In this document: piece by piece, positions 1,177 through 9,729 of the stretch
Position numbering within the stretch: the first letter of the stretch is position 1
Layout of the letters: each line of letters opens with the position of its first letter
Assembly: GCA_022560715.1 (NCBI GenBank)
Contig: JADFSQ010000016.1
Location: 1 to 13,689, forward strand
Source of the DNA: Bacteroidota bacterium
GTDB lineage: Bacteria > Bacteroidota > Bacteroidia > Flavobacteriales > Flavobacteriaceae
DNA length: 13,689 nt
Direction: 5' to 3'
The notes under the pieces: model-generated
What the model saw: the letters and a program-made list of their open reading frames with translations, nothing else
The model's database searches: none
Told to the model about the DNA's origin: nothing
Position numbers and translations under genes: made by a program

Positions 1177-1214
1177 GTTTATGGTTTCGAGTTCAATGTT
1201 ACCATAAAAATAAA

Positions 1215-1250
1215 ACTTTTAAACTTTAAACCTTAAACTTTAAACACTTT
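1215..1250 (-). repeat. 7-nt-period tandem array between divergent genes
   Basis: On the plus strand AAAC-type units start ACT, ACC, ACT and ACA at 1223, 1230, 1237 and 1244, exactly 7 nt apart. A further ACT at 1215 is out of phase by one base. On the minus strand this reads as repeated GTTTAA(A/G) with AGT or GGT every 7 nt. It fills most of the 77-nt spacer between the two TTG starts, so it overlaps the likely promoter or 5' leader of both genes. No clear TAnnTTTG box was found in this spacer; TATTTTTA on the minus strand is the nearest match. Confidence 0.8.
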
Positions 1251-1253
1251 AAT

Positions 1254-1955
1254 TTGAAAGACCTATTCGGAAAAGCTTTATTAGATTATCAAAACGGAAA
1301 TTACACCGAAGACATTATTACGTCTACAAGTATTTCGGAAGACGATGTATTGCCTCTCCCTTATTTGTTTAGAAGCTACAATGAAATGCCTAAATTAGAG
1401 CAAAAAGCTTTGGATCTTGCTCAAGGCAAAACTCTTGATGTTGGCTGTGGAGCTGGAAGCCATAGTTTGTTTTTACAAGAAAAAGGGTTGAATGTTAAAG
1501 CTATTGATATTTCAAAAGGTGCTATTGAAGTGTGCAAAAAACGAAGCCTTATTAATGCTGAAGTAAAAAATATTTTAAATGAAACCGAAACTTTTGACAC
1601 TATATTATTGTTAATGAATGGTACAGGAGTTTTTGAAGATCTGGCCAATGCCCCAAGACATTTAAACCATTTGAAACAGTTACTGAAACCCAATGGGCAA
1701 ATTTTAATTGACTCTTCTGATATTAAATATATGTATGAAGATGATGATGGAAATTATTGCATTAATGCCAATGCCAATTACTATGGCGAACTCGACTATT
1801 ATATTAGCTATAAAAACGAAAAAGAAAACCCTTTTAAAATGCTGTATTTAGATTTTGAAACTTTAAATTCTGCTTGCATTTCGGTTGGGTTACAATGTGA
1901 ATTGGTTTTAGAAGGTAAACATTATGATTATTTGGCGAGGTTAACAGTTGATTAA
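1254..1955 (+). CDS. Class I SAM-dependent methyltransferase
   Basis: This 233-residue protein carries a Rossmann-type methyltransferase motif I, LDVGCGAG (residues 61-68), which binds S-adenosylmethionine. The acidic end of strand 2 follows (KAIDIS, Asp85 contacting the ribose). A post-motif segment FDTILLLMNG fits motif 'post-II', and a strand LKPNGQILIDSSD fits motif III. The substrate cannot be read from the sequence; the 45-60 N-terminal residues before motif I probably form the substrate cap. The start is TTG at 1254-1256, because an in-frame TAA lies at 1227-1229 and the first ATG (1381) would remove 42 residues. A hairpin follows the stop codon directly. It converges with the amidohydrolase gene. 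The class is certain, the methyl acceptor unknown. Confidence 0.9.
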   Translation: MKDLFGKALLDYQNGNYTEDIITSTSISEDDVLPLPYLFRSYNEMPKLEQKALDLAQGKTLDVGCGAGSHSLFLQEKGLNVKAIDISKGAIEVCKKRSLINAEVKNILNETETFDTILLLMNGTGVFEDLANAPRHLNHLKQLLKPNGQILIDSSDIKYMYEDDDGNYCINANANYYGELDYYISYKNEKENPFKMLYLDFETLNSACISVGLQCELVLEGKHYDYLARLTVD

Positions 1956-1980
1956 TTTGTTGGTGAAAAACACCAACAAA
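1956..1980. terminator. Perfect 10-bp hairpin after the methyltransferase stop
   Basis: TTTGTTGGTG (1956-1965) and CACCAACAAA (1971-1980) form a perfect 10-bp stem around an all-A loop of 5 nt. It begins one base after the TAA of the methyltransferase gene and lies between convergent genes. Neither strand has a good T-tract after the stem, so it may act as a bidirectional attenuating or RNA-stabilising hairpin rather than a classic intrinsic terminator. Confidence 0.7.
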
Positions 1981-2000
1981 GGCGAAAATTACTCTAATGG

Positions 2001-2020
2001 ATTCCTGCCTACGCAGGAAT
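2001..2020. repeat. REP-like palindrome, ATTCCTGC/GCAGGAAT type
   Basis: ATTCCTGC (2001-2008) and GCAGGAAT (2013-2020) form an 8-bp stem around CTAC, with flanks TGG before and GACA after. Elements of this 'CAGGAATGACA' type are, as far as I know, scattered in intergenic DNA of many bacteria, where their six-frame translations give spurious peptides such as LRRQES. Here it lies between the convergent methyltransferase and amidohydrolase genes. Confidence 0.75.
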
Positions 2021-2028
2021 GACAACAG

Positions 2029-3642
2029 TTATTGAGCCACACCATCTACAAAAGTTTTTACCACTTTTATATTTGGAATTTCAGAAGTTTCAACTTCCAT
2101 AATATTTTTATCCAAAATGATAAAATCGGCAAATTTTCCAGTTTCTATACTTCCTTTTTCATCCTCTTCAAAATTTGAGTAAGCTGCCCAAATGGTCATT
2201 CCTTTTAAGGCTTCCTTTCTTGTTAATGCGTTTTCAATTTGATAACCTTTTTCTGGATAACCTTTTAAATCTTGTCTTGCTACAGCAGCGTAAAATGTAT
2301 AAAACGGACTCACAAATTCGACAGGAAAATCGGTTCCTAAAGCTACTTTCCCATACTTATTTAGTAAATCCTTAAAGGCATAAGCACCTTTTATGCGTTC
2401 TGCACCTACGCGATCTTCTGCCCAATACATATCGCTTGTGGCATGTGTTGGTTGTACAGAAGGAATTATATCATCAAACAACTCAAAATCTTCAAGCGAA
2501 ACCACTTGCGCATGTTCTATTCGCCATCTTCTATTTGATTTCCCTTTTAAAACTTCCTTATAGGTTTGTAATACAATATGATTTGCAGAATCTCCAATAG
2601 CGTGTGTATTCATTTGAAATTCTGAATTTGCAATTCGTTTTGCTGTTTCCTTTAAATCCTTAAAGCTATTTACTGATAGGCCAAAATGATTTTCTTTATC
2701 ACTATATGAAGCTCTTAACAATGCACCTCGTGAGCCTAAAGCACCATCGACATAATACTTAAACGAGCGAATATTTAATCGATCTGTTTTTATGATTCCT
2801 TTGTCTAAATAATAATCTAAATTTTCTTTCTCGCCAGAAATCATAGCGTAAATACGCATTTTTAAATCGCCTGATTTCTGTAAACTATCTATAATTTGGA
2901 TAGCTACAATACCTAATCCTGCATCATCAACAGTTGTTAATCCATAACCAAAACAAATGTCTTGAGCATCCATTAAGGCTTTTACAATATCTTCTCTTGA
3001 AACTTTTGGCCAATTATTCATCACTAAACTTTCAGCATTATCTACCAAAACACCTGTTAGTTTTCCATCATTAATCACAACTTCACCACCATTAATTTTA
3101 CTCTCTATAGTTACATTTCCCAAATCTAAAGCGGCTTGATTACATAAAATGGCGTGACCATCAATTCGGGTTAATACAATTGGCGTGTCAGGAAATAAGG
3201 CAGTTAATAATTTATTATTTGGAAACTCTTTTAGGTCCCAGTCGTTTTGATCCCAACCTCTTCCTTTAATATATTTTAAATTATTTTTATTCTGAAAATC
3301 GGTAACACGTTTTACAACCTCGTCAAAACTTGTAGTACCCACCAAATCCACAGCTTGCTGATTTAAACCTAATCCGAGAAAATGGCAATGCGCATCAATA
3401 AATCCAGGAACAATGGTTTGTCCATTAGCATCTTCAATAGTTAAAGCTTCATATTTAGCTAAAATAGTTTCTGTTGTCCCAACTTCTAAAAACTTTCCGT
3501 CTTTAACTGCAAAAGCTTGAGCAATTTCAAAGTTGTCATTTACAGTATAAATATTGGCGTTAGTAATAATTAAGTCGGCTTGTTCTTTTTTGGAACAGCT
3601 TACTACTGTTAAGGCTATTAAAAAGATAATTAGTTTTTGCAT
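2029..3642 (-). CDS. Amidohydrolase (Amidohydro_3/YtcJ-type) lipoprotein
   Basis: The 537-residue protein begins with a lipoprotein signal peptide: a hydrophobic core ends at VVSC, with Cys16 the likely lipidated residue and SKKEQ after it. It is therefore probably anchored to a cell-envelope membrane. The rest is a metal-dependent amidohydrolase of the YtcJ/N-substituted formamide deformylase type. Visible motifs are DAHCH (His85, His87), GRGWDQNDW (127-135), RIDGHA (159-164), GLTTVDDAG (234-242), FKYYVDGALGSRG (294-306, Lys295 a candidate carboxylated metal bridge), HAIGD (347-351), RIEHAQ (374-379) and GTDFPVE (436-442, Asp438 the candidate general base). All metal ligands expected for the family are present, so it should be active on an amide, formamide or similar C-N bond. 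The natural substrate is unknown. Start ATG; it lies downstream of the barrel gene across a repeat-filled 230-nt gap. Confidence 0.9.
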   Translation of the reverse strand: MQKLIIFLIALTVVSCSKKEQADLIITNANIYTVNDNFEIAQAFAVKDGKFLEVGTTETILAKYEALTIEDANGQTIVPGFIDAHCHFLGLGLNQQAVDLVGTTSFDEVVKRVTDFQNKNNLKYIKGRGWDQNDWDLKEFPNNKLLTALFPDTPIVLTRIDGHAILCNQAALDLGNVTIESKINGGEVVINDGKLTGVLVDNAESLVMNNWPKVSREDIVKALMDAQDICFGYGLTTVDDAGLGIVAIQIIDSLQKSGDLKMRIYAMISGEKENLDYYLDKGIIKTDRLNIRSFKYYVDGALGSRGALLRASYSDKENHFGLSVNSFKDLKETAKRIANSEFQMNTHAIGDSANHIVLQTYKEVLKGKSNRRWRIEHAQVVSLEDFELFDDIIPSVQPTHATSDMYWAEDRVGAERIKGAYAFKDLLNKYGKVALGTDFPVEFVSPFYTFYAAVARQDLKGYPEKGYQIENALTRKEALKGMTIWAAYSNFEEDEKGSIETGKFADFIILDKNIMEVETSEIPNIKVVKTFVDGVAQ

Positions 3643-3684
3643 GATTCTATGTTTAATTAATTAGGTTTTGGCTGCACTTCGACT

Positions 3685-3706
3685 ACATTTCGACTGCGCT
3701 CAATGT
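3685..3706. repeat. Short hairpin element with TCG(N6)CTC loop, copy A
   Basis: ACATT (3685-3689) pairs with AATGT (3702-3706) around a 12-nt loop TCGACTGCGCTC. Upstream, CTTCGACT at 3678-3685 partly repeats the loop start TTTCGACT (3688-3695). Sequences of the type 'TTCGACTGCGCTCA' are, to my knowledge, common dispersed intergenic elements in marine flavobacteria. It shares its architecture with the element at 3782-3803. Confidence 0.6.
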
Positions 3707-3781
3707 GAAATCTCGACCTGACAAAAAGTAAAAATAAGAAAAGTGTTTCTAAAAGAACTGGTTTTGGTAAAATTTGATGAG

Positions 3782-3803
3782 ATTCTTCGTTTACACTCAG
3801 AAT
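3782..3803. repeat. Short hairpin element with TCG(N6)CTC loop, copy B
   Basis: ATTCT (3782-3786) pairs with AGAAT (3799-3803) around the 12-nt loop TCGTTTACACTC. Stem length, loop length and both loop ends (TCG...CTC) match copy A, although the stem bases differ. It is followed by GACGAG, giving the AATGAC tail also seen after the palindrome at 2001-2020. Confidence 0.6.
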
Positions 3804-3835
3804 GACGAGAATAATGATTTAGCAAATAACATGAG

Positions 3836-3856
3836 ATCCTGAAACAAGTTCAGGAT
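3836..3856. repeat. REP-like palindrome, ATCCTGAA/TTCAGGAT type
   Basis: ATCCTGAA (3836-3843) and TTCAGGAT (3849-3856) form a perfect 8-bp stem around ACAAG, followed by TGAC. It resembles the element at 2001-2020 in outline (GAT-C-CTG stem, TGAC tail). It lies just downstream of the barrel gene's terminator-like hairpin and could act with it in 3'-end formation. Confidence 0.7.
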
Positions 3857-3857
3857 T

Positions 3858-3881
3858 GACTTCTGACTTCCGTCAGAAGTC
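3858..3881 (-). terminator. Hairpin that contains the barrel gene's stop codon
   Basis: GACTTCTGAC (3858-3867) and GTCAGAAGTC (3872-3881) form a perfect 10-bp stem with a TTCC loop on the plus strand. On the coding (minus) strand the 5' arm contains the last Asp and Phe codons and the TGA stop (3873-3875). No T-tract follows; instead the next hairpin (3836-3856) begins after one base. This is probably a terminator or mRNA 3'-end stabiliser. Confidence 0.7.
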
Positions 3882-5609
3882 AAACTTATAAGTAACTCCA
3901 GCTAAAAACTGAATACCTTGAACTGGATAATTCAGCCAACGTTGGTAATCCTGGTTTGCAATATTATTGGCCTTAATATATGTCGTCCATCGATCATTAA
4001 TACGATAGCCTAAATGTGCATTGGCATCAAAATAGCTTTCTAAAGTTATGGTTATTGGTGCTATTGGAATAAAAGGGTCAATAATATCCAACTGGTCTTT
4101 GCGCTCTCCTGTATAATATAAACTAGCTCCAGCAAACCAATGCTCGTCTATTTGAAAATCCATAAATAAGGAGGCTTTAAAATCTGGTAAATTCCAAGCT
4201 TCGGCTTCATCGTCTGTGTTATATGTAAAGTATTCAGCCTTGATACCTAAATTAAAATTTCGGTTTATATCGACATTAATCTCGCCAAAAACGCTAAAGG
4301 TTGTAACATCGTCATAAACCACACCATAAGAATTTCCGTTTTGGTATGGCTCATCTTCTACCAACAAAACCGGATTTGCCTTGAATAATGCCTTATCTCT
4401 ATCCGCATAATAATTTCCTCTAATATTATAACTCATAGTATTAGACAGTTTTCCTTTTAAACCAATATAAGCGTCGTATTGTTGGTCGGTTGGTTTTATA
4501 AACAAGGTTGGTGAAACAAATGGATTTTCTTTAGCAAAATCGTAATATGAATTTTGAATGAGGTCGCCTTCAATTCCGCCGTAAGCAATTAAAATTTCAT
4601 CTACCATTTTGTAAGATGCTGTAAGTTTTGGATAGATGAAGAACTTGTTTTTGCCGCCTTCAGTATCGTTTAAATAATAAGCTGAGACTCCTAAATTTAT
4701 AGTAAAATCGCCTTCTATTATTTGATAACTTGGAGAAACGCCAATCTGAAAATTACCATACTTTAATTCGTTAGTTCCAAAAAAACTTCTGTCGAAAGTG
4801 CCACCAAGATAATCTAATTTTACGCTTGTATTTAGCTTTCCATTTCTCAAAGGAATATCGAAATTTGTTTTCAATACAAATCTGTTTTCTCCAGAATCTA
4901 AATCGTCTGCAAAGCGTCTAAAACGCATACTTCCGTTATTAATTAATTTGTTATCGAACTTAATTTCACCACCAAAATCGAAAGTAAAAAATTTGTGTTG
5001 CGGATTAATAGCGTCGGCTAAAGTTTGGTCGAACAGCGGTTGTGGCAATCCATACCAATTAAAAACCTGATGTTGGTAATTGGCATCGACATTCCATGAA
5101 TAATCGCTTAACATTCTTGCATAATTCACATTAATTTTTGTGTTTGAAAAAGCATCGTCTAACAATAAGTTATCAATTCCACCTTGCGATGAATGATGAC
5201 TAATATAGCCACCAACACTTTCTCTTCTGTTTATAGCGTGATTTAAATAAATTTCGCCTAAAATACTTGTGTAACTCCCAACACCAATAGATGTGTAGTT
5301 ATCGTATAATTTTGCCTTTTTTGCTTTATCTACATCTGCAGCCTTTCCTTTTGAAGGCGTAAAGGTAGAAGCCACAGGAATTGAAAATATATTATACTTA
5401 ATCTCTTTTTTTGTTGCAGTTACCTCGTCATCAATTGATGGGATTTCCTTTACTTTAAAAGCATCAGAAATTTTAGGCGTATAAGGTTTTACCACATTTA
5501 CCACTTCTGTATTTATGGTATCTTTGGTTTGCTTTCGGTTTTGTGAAAATAGTACAGTAGTGGTTAAAACCGTAACTATAAATGATATGCTATTTCTGTT
5601 TAAAATCAT
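3873..5609 (-). CDS. Plug-less TonB-receptor-like outer-membrane beta-barrel protein
   Basis: The 578-residue protein has an N-terminal signal peptide (basic start, hydrophobic core, cleavage near FSQ, residues 20-23). A periplasmic-looking segment of about 70 residues rich in Lys, Thr and Pro follows, including VVKPYTPKISDAFKVKEIPS. The remainder is made of alternating aromatic-hydrophobic strands with loops rich in Asn, Asp and Gly, and it ends KANNIANQDYQRWLNYPVQG...VTYKFDF. The C-terminal 'NNI.N..YQ' stretch and terminal Phe are typical of TonB-dependent receptor barrels. At 578 residues it is shorter than most such receptors, and I see no plug domain or TonB box, so TonB-driven uptake is doubtful. 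It sits 156 nt downstream of the giant TPR gene on the same strand and probably acts with it in the envelope. The barrel assignment is good; substrate and role are unknown. Confidence 0.82.
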   Translation of the reverse strand: MILNRNSISFIVTVLTTTVLFSQNRKQTKDTINTEVVNVVKPYTPKISDAFKVKEIPSIDDEVTATKKEIKYNIFSIPVASTFTPSKGKAADVDKAKKAKLYDNYTSIGVGSYTSILGEIYLNHAINRRESVGGYISHHSSQGGIDNLLLDDAFSNTKINVNYARMLSDYSWNVDANYQHQVFNWYGLPQPLFDQTLADAINPQHKFFTFDFGGEIKFDNKLINNGSMRFRRFADDLDSGENRFVLKTNFDIPLRNGKLNTSVKLDYLGGTFDRSFFGTNELKYGNFQIGVSPSYQIIEGDFTINLGVSAYYLNDTEGGKNKFFIYPKLTASYKMVDEILIAYGGIEGDLIQNSYYDFAKENPFVSPTLFIKPTDQQYDAYIGLKGKLSNTMSYNIRGNYYADRDKALFKANPVLLVEDEPYQNGNSYGVVYDDVTTFSVFGEINVDINRNFNLGIKAEYFTYNTDDEAEAWNLPDFKASLFMDFQIDEHWFAGASLYYTGERKDQLDIIDPFIPIAPITITLESYFDANAHLGYRINDRWTTYIKANNIANQDYQRWLNYPVQGIQFLAGVTYKFDF

Positions 5610-5733
5610 ACTTGTTTTTTGTTTGATGTTTTTTTTTATTAAATTGAATACTTACAATAGAACGCTGATAACACTGATTTTTTATGATAAAATATGATTA
5701 ATAACTATCAACTCTAATTCAAAAACAAATCTT

Positions 5734-5757
5734 ACTGAAGACTGCTTACTGAATACT
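5734..5757 (-). repeat. 7-nt-period array after the TPR gene
   Basis: Plus-strand ACT trinucleotides start at 5734, 5741, 5748 and 5755, exactly 7 nt apart; the minus strand reads AGTNNNC repeated. The array begins 9 nt after the TPR stop codon, in the leader of the barrel gene if the two are co-transcribed. A shorter two-unit match (ACT at 5704 and 5711) lies nearby in another phase. The rest of the 156-nt gap (5610-5765) is AT-rich, with an A/T homopolymer near 5630, and shows no clear promoter box. Confidence 0.7.
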
Positions 5758-5765
5758 CCAATCAT

Positions 5766-8700
5766 TCAATTACCTTCTTCTGTTTCTACAGAAGAATTGG
5801 TTTTGGCTTGTTCGGCTTTTATTATGATTAATTCGGTTTTTGCTTCTGAAATAATATCATCAAACTCAGTAAAATTTTGAATGATGCTTTCTAATATATA
5901 AGTGGCTTGGAAAGCATCCTCTAAAGCATAATAATTCTTTGCCATAAGCACTAATCCTTTTGCTCCATAATATTTATATCCTGAATAATCCTTTGCTAAT
6001 TTTTGGACTACAGTATTAGACGATTTATAATTGCCTTCTTTATTTTTAAAATAGGCATTAAAATATAAGGCTTCGGCAGCCAAAACACCTGAAGCAATTT
6101 GTTCTACTTGTACATAAGCAATTTTTGCTCTTTCTTCATTTCCAGTTTGCATTGCAGAACGTGCAATAATAATATGAGCATCACTTTTTATATTTTTATC
6201 AATTTTTGAACTCAATAATACTTTTTCGGCGTAGGAAACTGCACCTTGATAGCGCTCTAATTGGTAATTTGCTTTCATTAAATTTGATTGTGCAAAAATG
6301 ATATTTTGAGGAAAATCGGCTTCAAGTTCTAAACGCTCTAAAATTGGAATTGCTGTAAACCAATCTCTATCATTCAAATAAATTTCAGCCAAACGTGTTA
6401 AGGCTATTTCGGTATATTCTCCGTTTGGTTTATTTACAACATATTCGTAATGAGGTGTTGCATTAGCTTTTAAATCGTCTTTAAAATATAATTGAGCGAG
6501 ATAAAAATGTGATGGTAAAGTGTGCAATCCATTCGGAAACTCATTTAAATACCCATTAAATAATTTTATGGCTTTGTTGTTGTTTGCCAAATATTGCTTT
6601 TCGGCAGCTTCGTAGGTTGCATTATCTAAATCGGCGTCAGAAACATCAATAAAGTTTAAGGTTTTTACCCAAGATGCGTACTCATTTACGCGACCTAAAT
6701 CTATATAAATTAAACGTGCCGAAGCGACTGCCTGAACAGCTTCGGGCGAACCCGAAAATTTATTAGCAACGTTTTTAAATTTGCTTAAAGCCTGCTCATC
6801 ATTTCCAGAATTATAATGTACAAGCCCTTGTCTTAACAAGGCTTTTGAAATGTACTGGCTCGATTTGTATTCGGTGTTTAAACGATTATACATTTCCATC
6901 GCTTTATCAACTTCGTTGTTTTTTACATACGAATTTCCAAGTTCGTATAAAGCATCATCTCTTAATGAAGATTTTGAAAAAGTGTTTATAAACTCATTTA
7001 ATTCCTTAATTTTTGCAGCACTTTTATTGATATAACCGTAACTTATTGCCTTTTGAAAAGAAGCATAATCTGCTTCAATTTCATTAATATTTATTGCTTT
7101 CTGATACGCTTTTATGGCGTTATTATAATCGCTGGATACGAAATAACCATCTCCCAAACGCAAATAGGCATCATTTAGTCTCACTTTATCTTCTGAAGAA
7201 TTTGAAATATAATTCTGAAAATATTCAGTAGCTTTAGTATAGTTTTTTTGTTTGAAATACGTGTAACCTAAATTGTAATCTATATTTTTATTTTCTTTAG
7301 TTGAAGTCGCTTGGCTGAAACCTTGAAACTGTTTAAAACCGACCAATGCATCATTATAATTTGCCAGATTATAATCGGTTTCTGCTTTCCAAAATGTTGC
7401 TCTTGCTGTGTATTTATCGTCTCTCGGTTCTTTTAACGATTTATCAAAAAACGACTCGGCTTCAAGGTATTTGCTCTCGTTATACAATTCTATTCCTCTA
7501 TAAAATGCTACTTTTTGATAGGCAACTTTGTTCTCGAAACTCTTTCTGCCTTCCAATAATTTTAAAGCCTCTTTGTAGTTTTTTGAAGTAATGTATGAGT
7601 CAATCAACAAGGTTTCAATCTCTTCTTTGTAGCTTGTTTTAGGATATTTATCGAGATATGCCGCCAAAACCTGAGGTACTGATTGGTACGGATTTCCTAT
7701 TTCGTAGCTTATTTTAGCATAGTTTAACCAGGCATCTTCCTGAATTTTCAAATCGAAGTCCATTTGCGAAGCGTTGCGAAATGCGTTTAAGGCTTCTTGT
7801 TTCTTGTTGACATTAATATAGCTTTCCCCGAGATGATAATAGGCATTTTGTGCTACCGAATTGTTGCCATCTATAATTTTATTGAATTCAGAAATAGCCT
7901 TATCGTACTCTTTTTGTTTGTAATACGCATAGCCTAATTGATAATAATCGGTATTGTTCCATCGTCCTCTTTCCCCTTTGTACTCAGCTAAAAACGGAAT
8001 TGCTTCAGCATATTGTTCTAAATTAAAATAACTTTCGCCTATAATTTTAGATAATTCTGATACTTCTTTTTTATCACTTTTTGGTAACTGTTCTTTGGCA
8101 AGCTCAATAGCTTTTTCAAAATTACCCAGTTTAAAATTCAAATCGGCTTGATAATAAGATAATCCTTCTTTGTATTTTTCATTATCACCAATCTGGTCAA
8201 AATACTCCGAAGCCCTCTCGTAGTCATTACCTTCATAAGCCATAAATCCTATATAGTATTTGGCTTGCGAGCCATACTTTTCAGAATTTTCTACTCGCGA
8301 TAAATATTTTTTTGCACCTTGATTATTATTAGTCGCATAAAAACTATAGCCATAATTAAAATTGAATGTTTCGCGCTCTTTTCGTGCCAAAGCATCTTCA
8401 TCTACTTTATCGTACCATTTTCTGGCATAAGCAAATCGGGAATTCTCAAAATAGTAATCTGCAACATCCATAAACGCTGTGTTACGTTTTGTACTTGTTG
8501 GATATTCTTCAACAAATTGTTCAATTAAATCGTCGGCATTTTGTTGGTTTAATCGTACTGCACAATTAGCGATATAATAGGCACAATCCGATTTTAATAT
8601 TTCGTCTTTAGCAGTATTTTCTACTTTTTCGAATAAAGATTGAGCAGCGAGATATTGTTTGCTGTTATATAATGAAAGTGCTTTTTGATATTCTACTAAT

Positions 8701-8789
8701 TCGCTTGTATAAATAGCAGATTGTTGAGCGACAATAGAGACGTTACATAGTATTGCAAAAGCAATAGCTAACAAACATTTTTTTATCAT
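5766..8789 (-). CDS. Giant periplasmic tetratricopeptide-repeat protein
   Basis: The 1007-residue protein has an N-terminal signal peptide (MIKK, hydrophobic core, cleavage near IVAQQ, about residue 21). Nearly all of the rest consists of tandem helical hairpins of TPR type, seen as repeated Y/L-x2-G/A-x3-Y and A-x3-F/Y patterns. Examples are YYQLGYAYYKQKEYDKAISEFNKI, AYYHLGESYINVNKKQEALNAF, AYLRLGDGYFVSSDYNNAIKAY and DALYELGNSYVKNNEVDKAMEMY (each quoted in part). No catalytic domain or membrane anchor is visible. Such superhelices bind other proteins, and several segments (for example EQFVEEYPTS) resemble the BamD/YbgF style of envelope TPRs. The partner is probably the barrel protein encoded downstream. 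A candidate TAnnTTTG box lies 22 nt upstream of the ATG. The TPR assignment is certain; the role in envelope assembly is inference. Confidence 0.9.
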   Translation of the reverse strand: MIKKCLLAIAFAILCNVSIVAQQSAIYTSELVEYQKALSLYNSKQYLAAQSLFEKVENTAKDEILKSDCAYYIANCAVRLNQQNADDLIEQFVEEYPTSTKRNTAFMDVADYYFENSRFAYARKWYDKVDEDALARKERETFNFNYGYSFYATNNNQGAKKYLSRVENSEKYGSQAKYYIGFMAYEGNDYERASEYFDQIGDNEKYKEGLSYYQADLNFKLGNFEKAIELAKEQLPKSDKKEVSELSKIIGESYFNLEQYAEAIPFLAEYKGERGRWNNTDYYQLGYAYYKQKEYDKAISEFNKIIDGNNSVAQNAYYHLGESYINVNKKQEALNAFRNASQMDFDLKIQEDAWLNYAKISYEIGNPYQSVPQVLAAYLDKYPKTSYKEEIETLLIDSYITSKNYKEALKLLEGRKSFENKVAYQKVAFYRGIELYNESKYLEAESFFDKSLKEPRDDKYTARATFWKAETDYNLANYNDALVGFKQFQGFSQATSTKENKNIDYNLGYTYFKQKNYTKATEYFQNYISNSSEDKVRLNDAYLRLGDGYFVSSDYNNAIKAYQKAININEIEADYASFQKAISYGYINKSAAKIKELNEFINTFSKSSLRDDALYELGNSYVKNNEVDKAMEMYNRLNTEYKSSQYISKALLRQGLVHYNSGNDEQALSKFKNVANKFSGSPEAVQAVASARLIYIDLGRVNEYASWVKTLNFIDVSDADLDNATYEAAEKQYLANNNKAIKLFNGYLNEFPNGLHTLPSHFYLAQLYFKDDLKANATPHYEYVVNKPNGEYTEIALTRLAEIYLNDRDWFTAIPILERLELEADFPQNIIFAQSNLMKANYQLERYQGAVSYAEKVLLSSKIDKNIKSDAHIIIARSAMQTGNEERAKIAYVQVEQIASGVLAAEALYFNAYFKNKEGNYKSSNTVVQKLAKDYSGYKYYGAKGLVLMAKNYYALEDAFQATYILESIIQNFTEFDDIISEAKTELIIIKAEQAKTNSSVETEEGN

Positions 8790-8810
8790 TTAGTTCGTTT
8801 TTGATGTTGT

Positions 8811-8818
8811 CAAAGATA
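8811..8818 (-). promoter_or_regulatory. Candidate Bacteroidota -7 box (TATCTTTG) for the TPR gene
   Basis: TATCTTTG on the minus strand matches the Bacteroidota -7 consensus TAnnTTTG exactly and ends 21 nt before the ATG. A second exact match, TATATTTG, lies at 8849-8856. No TTG at the usual -33 distance was found for the nearer box, so either one may be the working promoter. Confidence 0.45.
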
Positions 8819-8886
8819 TTTAATCTTGGTTTTTATAACGTATGAAAACAAATATAATTATAAACGGAGTTATTAAAAGTTTAAGA

Positions 8887-8910
8887 GACGGAAGACAGAA
8901 GACCGAAGAC
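8887..8910 (-). repeat. 7-nt-period GAC array between divergent genes
   Basis: GAC begins at 8887, 8894, 8901 and 8908, exactly every 7 nt, in units of the form GAAGACN. The minus strand reads GTCTTCN. It lies about 100 nt upstream of the TPR start and 73 nt upstream of the FtsE start, within the shared divergent regulatory region. Confidence 0.75.
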
Positions 8911-8928
8911 TTGGAATTTAGTGTTTGA

Positions 8929-8936
8929 TATTTTTG
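8929..8936 (+). promoter_or_regulatory. Candidate -7 box (TATTTTTG) for the ftsE gene
   Basis: TATTTTTG matches TAnnTTTG and lies 46 nt before the ATG. A TTG at 8911-8913 would be the -33 element, but the 15-nt spacer is shorter than usual for this promoter class. In such AT-rich DNA a chance match is quite possible. Confidence 0.35.
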
Positions 8937-8982
8937 ATTTTAAATGATACTTTTACAATACTTTAAAAATCCTTAATAATTT

Positions 8983-9666
8983 ATGTCTGAAATCGTTTTA
9001 CAATTAAAAAACGTTTCTATTTACCAAGGAGATAGCTTAGTGTTGTCTGATGTAAATGTAGAAATGAAAAAAGGTGATTTTGTTTACCTTATTGGAAAAA
9101 CAGGAACCGGGAAAAGTAGTTTTATGAAACTTCTTTATGCCGATTTAGAACTTACCGAAGGAGAAGGCTCTATTGTTGATTTTAATTTGAAAACCCTTAA
9201 AGAAAAAGACATTCCGTTTTTAAGGCGAAAACTTGGTATAGTATTTCAGGATTTTAAACTGCTAAATGACAGAACTGTTAATGGTAATTTAGAGTTTGTT
9301 TTAAGAGCAACAGGTTGGAAAGATAAACAACAAATTAGTGACCGAATAGACGATGTTCTTGGTAAGGTCGATATGAAAACCAAAGGCTTTAAGTTCCCTT
9401 ATCAACTTTCGGGAGGTGAGCAACAACGTATTGCTATTGCAAGAGCATTATTAAACGATCCTGAACTTATACTTGCTGATGAACCAACAGGAAATCTTGA
9501 TCCACAAACAAGTATTGAAGTTATGGAAGTGCTGCAGGAATTAAACAAAAAAGGAAATACTATTTTAATGGCAACTCATGATTATGCCCTACTTTTAAAA
9601 TATCCAAGCAAAACACTTAAATGTGATGAGAATAAAGTGTTTGAAGTTGTGCAACGTAAAGGTTAA
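8983..9666 (+). CDS. ftsE: FtsE-type ABC transporter ATP-binding protein
   Basis: The 227-residue protein is one complete ABC ATPase domain. Visible motifs are Walker A GKTGTGKSS (residues 38-46), Q-loop FQDFKLL (88-94), signature LSGGEQQ (142-148), Walker B LILADEP (162-168), D-loop GNLD (170-173) and the switch His199 in ATHD. The FQDFKLL Q-loop and the size are typical of FtsE, the cytosolic partner of FtsX that controls peptidoglycan hydrolysis at division sites. The LolD/MacB-like ATPases are close relatives. All ATP-binding residues are intact. No ftsX lies next to it within this window: it is divergent from the TPR gene and converges on the beta-helix gene. ABC ATPase is certain; FtsE rather than another small ABC subunit is likely. 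Confidence 0.85.
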   Translation: MSEIVLQLKNVSIYQGDSLVLSDVNVEMKKGDFVYLIGKTGTGKSSFMKLLYADLELTEGEGSIVDFNLKTLKEKDIPFLRRKLGIVFQDFKLLNDRTVNGNLEFVLRATGWKDKQQISDRIDDVLGKVDMKTKGFKFPYQLSGGEQQRIAIARALLNDPELILADEPTGNLDPQTSIEVMEVLQELNKKGNTILMATHDYALLLKYPSKTLKCDENKVFEVVQRKG

Positions 9667-9729
9667 GAGTTAAAAGTTATGAGTTAAAAGTTATGAGTTA
9701 TGAGTTATGAGTTATGAGTTATGAGTAAA
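9667..9729 (+). repeat. Nine-unit heptamer tandem array, GAGTTAT type
   Basis: Nine consecutive 7-nt units start directly after the ftsE stop codon: GAGTTAA, AAGTTAT, GAGTTAA, AAGTTAT, then four exact GAGTTAT, and a last degenerate GAGTAAA. AGT recurs at 9668 and every 7 nt up to 9724 without a slip. The array ends 13 nt before the stop codon of the convergent beta-helix gene and takes the place where a terminator would be expected. The identical units suggest recent copy-number change by slippage. Confidence 0.93.

What the first reader, a model, noticed from the sequence alone, without database searches (positions are those of the whole stretch)
1215..9729. Four intergenic arrays with unrelated units but one common 7-nt period and a phased GT core
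The arrays at 1215-1250, 5734-5757, 8887-8910 and 9667-9729 use different units (GTTTAAA, AGTNNNC, GTCTTCN, AGTTATG). Each repeats with exactly 7-nt spacing and keeps a GT-containing core (mostly AGT) at every repeat. In each case the GT strand can be the sense strand of an adjacent gene: leader of the YkgJ-type gene, TPR-barrel spacer, leader of the TPR gene, and 3' end of ftsE. A sequence-diverse but phase-conserved pattern suggests selection on spacing, for example a modular RNA- or DNA-binding protein that reads one short core per 7 nt, or a common copying mechanism. Heptamer direct repeats such as TAACTGA have, as I recall, been described in some Beggiatoaceae, cyanobacteria and a few Bacteroidota; the shared phase across different units may be new.
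Basis: partly seen in the sequence, partly recalled or inferred. Interest (0 to 1): 0.75.

Follow-up and report, generated by a model that had tools for sequence, protein, structure and literature searches.

The report
Seven-letter repeat arms of IVP elements
The short seven-base repeats between genes in this marine bacterium look like the arms, or leftover arms, of a small gene-carrying element whose gene codes for a ring-forming protein of unknown function; similar arms flank that gene in unrelated bacteria, which could explain a long-puzzling type of bacterial repeat.

Summary
The four arrays are real. Lag 7 is in excess in this genome and its relatives, and AGT is the strongest phased core. 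Instead the AGT strand starts near a gene edge and reads away from it, whichever way the gene points (68 of 122 edges within 10 nt on the AGT 5' side, 9 of 123 on the 3' side). Arrays on opposite strands within 600 nt face each other (25 to 0). Some such pairs enclose a PF05635 gene (IVP, four-helix bundle) or its remnant. Flanks of 20 IVP genes chosen by HMM rank show lag-7 excess (z 9.4) and inverted complementarity (13 of 20 above the control 95th percentile). Of 13 named plasmid IVPs, 11 have period-7/8 arrays on both sides, 9 inverted. One operon junction shows empty, ORF-less-arm and IVP states. IVP and AGT-array counts correlate over 149 genomes (rho 0.70). Unit number peaks at five; IVP relatives are pentamers. 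Best reading: the window arrays are solo arms of IVP elements, and an IVP ring reads one core per subunit. That last step is inference. The window holds no IVP gene, and most arrays lie far from one.

The parts
1213..1250 (-).
   Evidence: TRF period 7; sequence
5734..5757 (-). Array 2: AGT x4 at exact spacing 7, CAGTNNN type; starts 8 nt after the stop of the TPR gene and reads away from it
   Evidence: sister locus L093 has six units at this site
8886..8910 (-). Array 3: GTCTTCN units at spacing 7 in the TPR-ftsE gap; not adjacent to either gene edge
   Evidence: relatives carry other arrays in this gap: L092 five CAGTNNN units, L100 (Gelidibacter gilvus) facing arms
9668..9726 (+). Array 4: AGT x9 at spacing 7 (AGTTATG/AGTTAAA); starts 1 nt after the ftsE stop and reads away from it
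   Evidence: the same unit flanks an IVP remnant on own contig C185
5612..5634 (+). Weak TTGTTTT period-7 tract just before the start of the gene at 3873-5609; possible opposing arm to array 2 with another core
   Evidence: TRF score 32; not tested further
5766..8789 (-). TPR-repeat gene (1007 aa) between arrays 2 and 3
8983..9666 (+).
1254..1955 (+). Methyltransferase-domain gene whose start abuts array 1

Best explanation
The window's arrays are solo (single-arm or decayed) arms of a widespread family of small intergenic elements. A complete element is: inward-reading phased units, then a gene for a PF05635 protein (IVP/S23p, four-helix bundle, about 120 aa), then phased units reading inward from the other side. 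It sits in short spacers, at several sites inside operons, so its arms touch the neighbouring genes. ORF-less forms keep two facing arms and can fold as a hairpin of 4-bp core stems with 2-3 nt internal loops; solo arms would be a further stage. Shown here: the arrays, their phase, outward polarity and facing pairs; the association with IVP genes in several phyla; three states of one junction; four pairs kept by double change in one hairpin; a peak at five units. Inferred: that an IVP pentamer binds an arm with one AG/AGT core per subunit, 7 nt apart, as the TRAP ring reads phased triplets (TRAP recalled, no call), so that core and phase are selected while spacer bases drift. RNA or DNA as ligand, and the way the element spreads, are unknown. 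My odds: arms of IVP elements about 0.75; ring reading about 0.4.
For: Polarity: 42 of 58 and 26 of 64 gene 3'/5' ends within 10 nt on the AGT 5' side, against 6 of 56 and 3 of 67 on the 3' side. Facing pairs 25 to 0 within 600 nt; 15 of 113 array-bearing spacers hold both orientations, all facing. IVP gene or remnant between facing arms: own C170 and C185, G119 by eye. Twenty IVP genes chosen by HMM rank: lag-7 excess .072 against -.006 in controls, z 9.4, lag 8 z 4.4, lags 6 and 9 none; inverted flanks above the control 95th percentile in 13 of 20, direct in 1 of 20; AG core at spacing 7 run 4 or more in 22 of 40 arms, 4 of 764 control arms, 0 of 40 on the other strand (chosen after reading the flanks). 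Plasmid IVPs: period-7/8 segments on both sides in 11 of 13 against 2 of 382 control genes, inverted in 9. Thiolase junction: arms+IVP in 7 of the 20 loci, four ORF-less, three empty, one short. IVP versus AGT-array counts rho 0.70, partial 0.66. Run length 36, 45, 9 at n=4, 5, 6. Fold: 2gsc and 2rld, five chains each. A published IVS has tandem heptamers before its S23p ORF (PMC4990558, passages).
Against: No IVP gene in the window. An HMM search found IVPs only in own contigs (C59 twice, C97, C185) among the held own contigs, the 80 relatives and the stretches of six genomes, although arrays occur in all. 98 of 113 array-bearing spacers have one orientation only and do not fold better than background. 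Ten of 36 genomes without a PF05635 match have AGT arrays, mostly 1-2 matches, G091 ten. Among the 20 IVP loci a lag-7/8 segment is found on both sides in 5, one side in 10, neither in 5; two plasmid IVPs have direct, not inverted arrays (L420, L425), one has none (L423), and some viral-contig IVPs score higher direct than inverted. Strict AGT runs in the 20-IVP set stop at 4; the n=5 peak is not significant in two subsets. The correlation is not corrected for phylogeny. No binding or mobility evidence.
Confidence: 0.7

Rival explanations
1. Ordinary simple-sequence repeats made by replication slippage, with 7 nt favoured by the polymerase (proposal of Mrazek et al. 2007 as reported in PMC4679880, section 3); AGT is incidental.
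For: Long perfect arrays (up to 21 units) and 14-mer higher-order repeats show that slippage acts. Heptamers are reported as a common long SSR class.
Against: Spacers vary while AGT stays in phase; outward polarity; facing pairs 25 to 0; peak at five units; arms at IVP genes.
Confidence: 0.12
2. Intercistronic RNA hairpins (like REP/BIME in effect) kept for mRNA stability or attenuation; the IVP gene is a passenger that sometimes lands in them.
For: Facing pairs fold strongly (10 of 10 below z -2); 17 of 18 atpD-atpC spacers of 41-100 nt fold below z -2; 4 of 20 pairs kept by double change.
Against: Single arrays fold like background yet keep the core; IVP flanks carry arms far more often than control genes.
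Confidence: 0.2
3. Binding sites of another heptad-reading protein, such as a ribbon-helix-helix filament like the omega repressor (7-bp heptads; recalled, only a search listing seen).
For: A 7-bp stacked array read one unit per dimer is known for omega (recalled).
Against: Cores differ between elements while the gene between facing arms is an IVP; no such RHH gene was sought.
Confidence: 0.06
4. G-quadruplex elements, as proposed for Xanthomonas and Nostoc heptamers (PMC4692102).
For: Some plasmid IVP arms are G-rich.
Against: The window and own-genome arrays hold no G tracts.
Confidence: 0.02

Closest known systems
23S rRNA intervening sequences (IVS) with an S23p/IVP ORF (PF05635)
   Same: Same protein family; ORF between inverted arms; a published IVS has tandem heptamers before the ORF (PMC4990558, passages)
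   Different: The elements seen here lie between protein genes, not in 23S rRNA; arms are phased degenerate arrays; the window arrays are solo arms without ORF
Intergenic TAACTGA direct repeats (Beggiatoaceae, Cyanobacteria, some Bacteroidetes; PMC4679880)
   Same: Heptamer; its complement holds AGT in phase; sets before start codons and one reversed set after a stop fit the outward rule
   Different: That paper treats one fixed unit and a passage search shows no mention of S23 or intervening sequences
GGGAATC heptamers of Xanthomonas and GGGGA(T/C)T of Nostoc (PMC4692102)
   Same: Held unit positions, and 70 and 75 convergent pairs (passages)
   Different: Interpreted there as G-quadruplexes; no link to IVP seen in the passages
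Avd proteins of diversity-generating retroelements
   Same: Same fold by Foldseek (4dwl, 8ube); bAvd PF22296 also matches the own C170 IVP
   Different: No reverse transcriptase, template or variable repeat was looked for near these IVPs
REP/BIME-type intercistronic palindromes
   Same: Hairpins in operon spacers
   Different: Phased 7-nt core and IVP gene; RAYT and the REP consensus were not tested
TRAP ring binding phased triplets (recalled)
   Same: Would work alike: one short core per ring subunit, free spacers
   Different: Unrelated protein; 7-nt step and five cores here; binding not shown

Membership tests
23S rRNA intervening sequence (IVS) | Inserted in a 23S rRNA gene | tested here: not met
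   The window arrays lie between protein genes; the IVP loci examined lie beside protein genes where read
23S rRNA intervening sequence (IVS) | ORF of the S23p/IVP family | tested here: not met
   Not met for the window arrays; met for complete elements elsewhere
23S rRNA intervening sequence (IVS) | Terminal inverted repeats forming a stem | tested here: inconclusive
   Window arrays are single arms; 13 of 20 family IVPs and 9 of 13 plasmid IVPs have inverted flanks above the control 95th percentile
23S rRNA intervening sequence (IVS) | Excision by RNase III | not testable with these tools
   needs RNA work
IVP element (proposed here) | Phased 7/8-nt arrays at a PF05635 gene | tested here: met
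   Lag-7/8 segment on one or both sides in 15 of 20 family and 12 of 13 plasmid IVPs, against 25 of 382 control genes; for the window arrays only by unit likeness to own arms
IVP element (proposed here) | Five units per arm | tested here: inconclusive
   Pooled peak p 1.5e-5, own genome p 0.001, two subsets not significant; window arrays have 4 and 9 strict AGT units
Slippage SSR | Substitutions independent of phase and orientation | tested here: not met
REP/BIME | Conserved palindrome with GTAG foot and RAYT (recalled) | not tested
   no search made

The most novel reading that the evidence does not exclude
IVP proteins are pentameric rings with a readable nucleic-acid code: an arm carries five AG(T) cores, one per subunit, 7 (sometimes 8) nt apart with free spacers. 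IVP elements and their relics are the common source of bacterial heptamer repeats (Bacteroidota, Cyanobacteria, Xanthomonas, Beggiatoaceae), so two old puzzles, what heptamer repeats are and what S23p/IVP does, share one answer.
Probability: 0.38. Interest if true: 0.9.

Novelty: new variant of a known kind. Interest (0 to 1): 0.8.

Why it matters
Heptamers are reported as a common long repeat class in bacteria without an agreed explanation, and the PF05635 protein has no known function (statements in PMC4679880, PMC4692102, PMC4990558). Tying the two gives a cheap test (does the IVP ring bind five phased cores?), explains why unrelated units share a 7-nt phase, and points to an element family that has entered spacers of core operons such as atpD-atpC and the thiolase operon.

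Tried and rejected
Sense-strand rule: rejected (42 versus 38). Cis RNA hairpin as the whole explanation: rejected, single-orientation arrays fold like background (medians -0.43 and -0.45). G-quadruplex: rejected for this genome, no G tracts. Leading/lagging strand: array strands of the single-contig genome G125 look mixed, but origin and terminus were not located, so this is no test. Rfam at gathering thresholds on the window: no match. AGT skew as plain base composition: absent at gene 3' ends once arrays are removed (own 110 versus 102; relatives 286 versus 258; six genomes 247 versus 240), but a general skew remains at 5' ends, so the 5'-end polarity is weaker evidence. The first lag table was void because 22 of the 40 contigs are withheld and read N; redone. 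An IVP alignment could not be used for a viral-contig scan; single proteins gave 11 loci (four of them near-identical) and none. One search leaves out the 30 loci fetched with a five-unit pattern. The 384 controls still held two own IVPs; they were removed. Two of 30 atpC loci were not resolved.
Full report
OBSERVATION. The window lies in a draft genome (2.38 Mb, 444 contigs, 81.6% complete); the best FtsE matches are to Flavobacteriaceae. The four arrays are present. Three have exact 7-nt spacing; the first has an 8-nt step. AGT is strict in two of four. In 396 kb of own contigs not chosen for arrays lag 7 gives 10 arrays against 0, 3, 1, 1 at lags 5, 6, 8, 9; in 80 named relatives (1.57 Mb) 27 against 0, 8, 5, 3; order-2 Markov sequence gives 1 and 0 at lag 7. 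AGT/ACT at spacing 7 leads the pooled five-unit scan of 60 trinucleotides.

CORE AND SPACER. AGT(N4) five times in phase occurs in 100 of 149 genomes of the family; at spacing 8 in 34, many of those AGTT tetramers. The own-genome matches listed (a capped list) are mostly CAGT plus three free bases, with AGTTAWR as a second type. One array of G013 holds sixteen phased AGT while the spacer runs through AGG, CTT, TTT, AAA, CCT, CAA and AGA. Mismatch phase is uneven at p<0.05 in 16 of 37 arrays found without reference to AGT; 14-mer substructure inflates this.

POLARITY. Of 134 distinct arrays of four or more units, 8 inside an ORF call were left out, as were unknown gene ends. Gene 3' ends lie within 10 nt of the AGT 5' side in 42 of 58 cases and of the 3' side in 6 of 56; gene 5' ends in 26 of 64 and 3 of 67. 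The 80 relatives alone show it only at 3' ends (6 of 6; 5' ends 0 of 8). Gene calls are a simple ORF rule. Lone AGT triplets show no skew at 3' ends once arrays are removed; at 5' ends a general skew exists. So arrays read outward from a gene edge whatever the gene's strand. Opposite-strand arrays (three or more units) within 600 nt face each other, 25 to 0. The published TAACTGA sets before start codons and one reversed set after a stop fit this rule (PMC4679880 section 10); its Microcystis sample is mixed.

HAIRPINS. Of 113 spacers with an array, 15 hold both orientations, all facing. Ten of these of 40-160 nt fold below z -2; 44 single-orientation spacers have median z -0.43 and 150 array-free ones -0.45 (37 below -2). 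Several facing pairs lie between co-directed neighbours; from the translations I recall these as atpD-atpC, sufC-sufD, a mevalonate pair, a MoxR pair and fadB-fadA. atpC was found in 144 of 149 genomes; 30 loci were cut out and 28 spacers resolved. Eight are 11-22 nt. Of 18 spacers of 41-100 nt, 17 fold below z -2; 14 of the 17 have a lag-7 score of 6 or more, with different units in different genera (CAGT, GAGTT, TAGTT, CAATTGT, AAGC), and three are hairpins of other kinds. In seven aligned spacers many invariant columns fall on the cores; the consensus fold pairs CAGT with ACTG across 2-3 nt loops and 4 of 20 pairs are kept by double change.

BETWEEN THE ARMS. Facing pairs about 400 nt apart enclose a PF05635 gene on own C170 and a PF05635 remnant on own C185, whose arms carry the AGTTATG unit of window array 4; G119 has a broken copy recognised by eye. 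Other facing pairs enclose no IVP (e.g. C230). PF05635 has 12 matches in the own genome (9 over cut-off) and occurs in 113 of 149 genomes. To avoid circularity I took the best HMM match from each of the first 20 genomes in rank order and read 350 nt each side. Lag-7 excess .072 against -.006 in control genes (z 9.4), lag 8 z 4.4, lags 6 and 9 none. Inverted complementarity exceeds the control 95th percentile in 13 of 20, direct in 1 of 20; a lag-7/8 segment lies on both sides in 5, one side in 10, neither in 5, against 2, 23 and 357 of 382 controls. In one search, two of the four top control scorers proved to be own IVPs. AG at spacing 7 runs four or more times in 22 of 40 arms, 4 of 764 control arms, 0 of 40 on the other strand (chosen after reading the flanks). 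An HMM search of the held own contigs, the 80 relatives and the six-genome stretches found IVPs only on own contigs, so most arrays there are not next to an IVP.

OTHER PHYLA. Of 26 plasmid records with an IVP match I read 13: 11 cyanobacteria, Azospirillum, Riemerella. Eleven have a period-7/8 segment on both sides, one (Stanieria) on one side, one (Calothrix PCC 7716) none; 9 are inverted above the control 95th percentile, 2 (Pseudanabaena, Nostoc HK-01) direct. Lag-7 excess is .15; other lags up to 13 are at most .025. The controls are Flavobacteriaceae genes, not genes of those plasmids. Eleven viral-contig loci, four near-identical: 6 inverted and 3 direct above the 95th percentile. A published rRNA IVS has three tandem GACAGAT heptamers before its S23p ORF (PMC4990558, passages). 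Xanthomonas GGGAATC heptamers show held positions and 70 and 75 convergent pairs (PMC4692102, passages); the IVP structure 2gsc is from X. campestris.

ONE JUNCTION, THREE STATES. Seven of the 20 IVP loci lie just before the thiolase gene by coordinates, and the own genome has an IVP about 100 nt before its thiolase match. At the window's TPR-ftsE gap Gelidibacter gilvus has facing CAGT arms and relative L092 a single five-unit arm.

FIVE UNITS. Without the loci fetched by a five-unit pattern, AGT runs number 36, 45, 9 at n = 4, 5, 6; a log-linear fall predicts 18 at five (p 1.5e-5). Own genome 16 against 4.7 (p .001), atpC loci p .0055; relatives p .28 and G125/G101/G023 p .21. Of 50 paired arms 25 have exactly five units. 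In the 20-IVP set strict AGT runs stop at four, while AG runs peak at five (11 of 22). 2gsc and 2rld each show five chains and PMC4990558 calls S23p a homopentamer. The model of the own C170 IVP has pLDDT 97 and matches these and Avd. One core per subunit is the natural reading; no binding was tested.

PRIOR ART. The listings showed no paper linking heptamer repeats outside rRNA to PF05635; the library lacks most subscription journals. Known parts: IVS, IVP structures, heptamer repeats, convergent heptamer pairs. New as far as seen: the link, the outward rule, the empty/ORF-less/IVP series and the five-core idea. I do not file the arrays as 23S IVS members (location not met) but as arms and relics of an intergenic variant of that kind.

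VERDICT. Arrays real; shared phase real; arms of IVP elements is the best explanation (overall 0.7); ring reading is a testable inference (about 0.4).

Noticed in passing
window 5655-5700 (read on the minus strand); also own loci L056, L059, L300: A shared spacer sequence like ATCATATTTTATCATAAAAATCAGTGTTATCAGCGTTCTATT recurs beside arrays in several own spacers.
   Followed up: no
own loci L059, L077, L334: The palindrome CCCGATAGCTATCGGG recurs inside or beside arrays.
   Followed up: no
window 2001-2025 and 3859-3886: Short near-perfect palindromes in spacers, a kind different from the heptamers.
   Followed up: no
   Followed up: no
L420, L421, L426 (cyanobacterial plasmids): IVP genes sit between CRISPR genes: cas6 and cas4, and cmr2/cas10 and a Cmr3-family gene.
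   Followed up: no
thiolase junction in many family genomes: IVP genes recur just before or after the thiolase gene, as if this were a favoured site.
   Followed up: partly
L339, L343, L358 (atpD-atpC spacer): Three genomes carry hairpins without heptamers at the same operon spacer.
   Followed up: no
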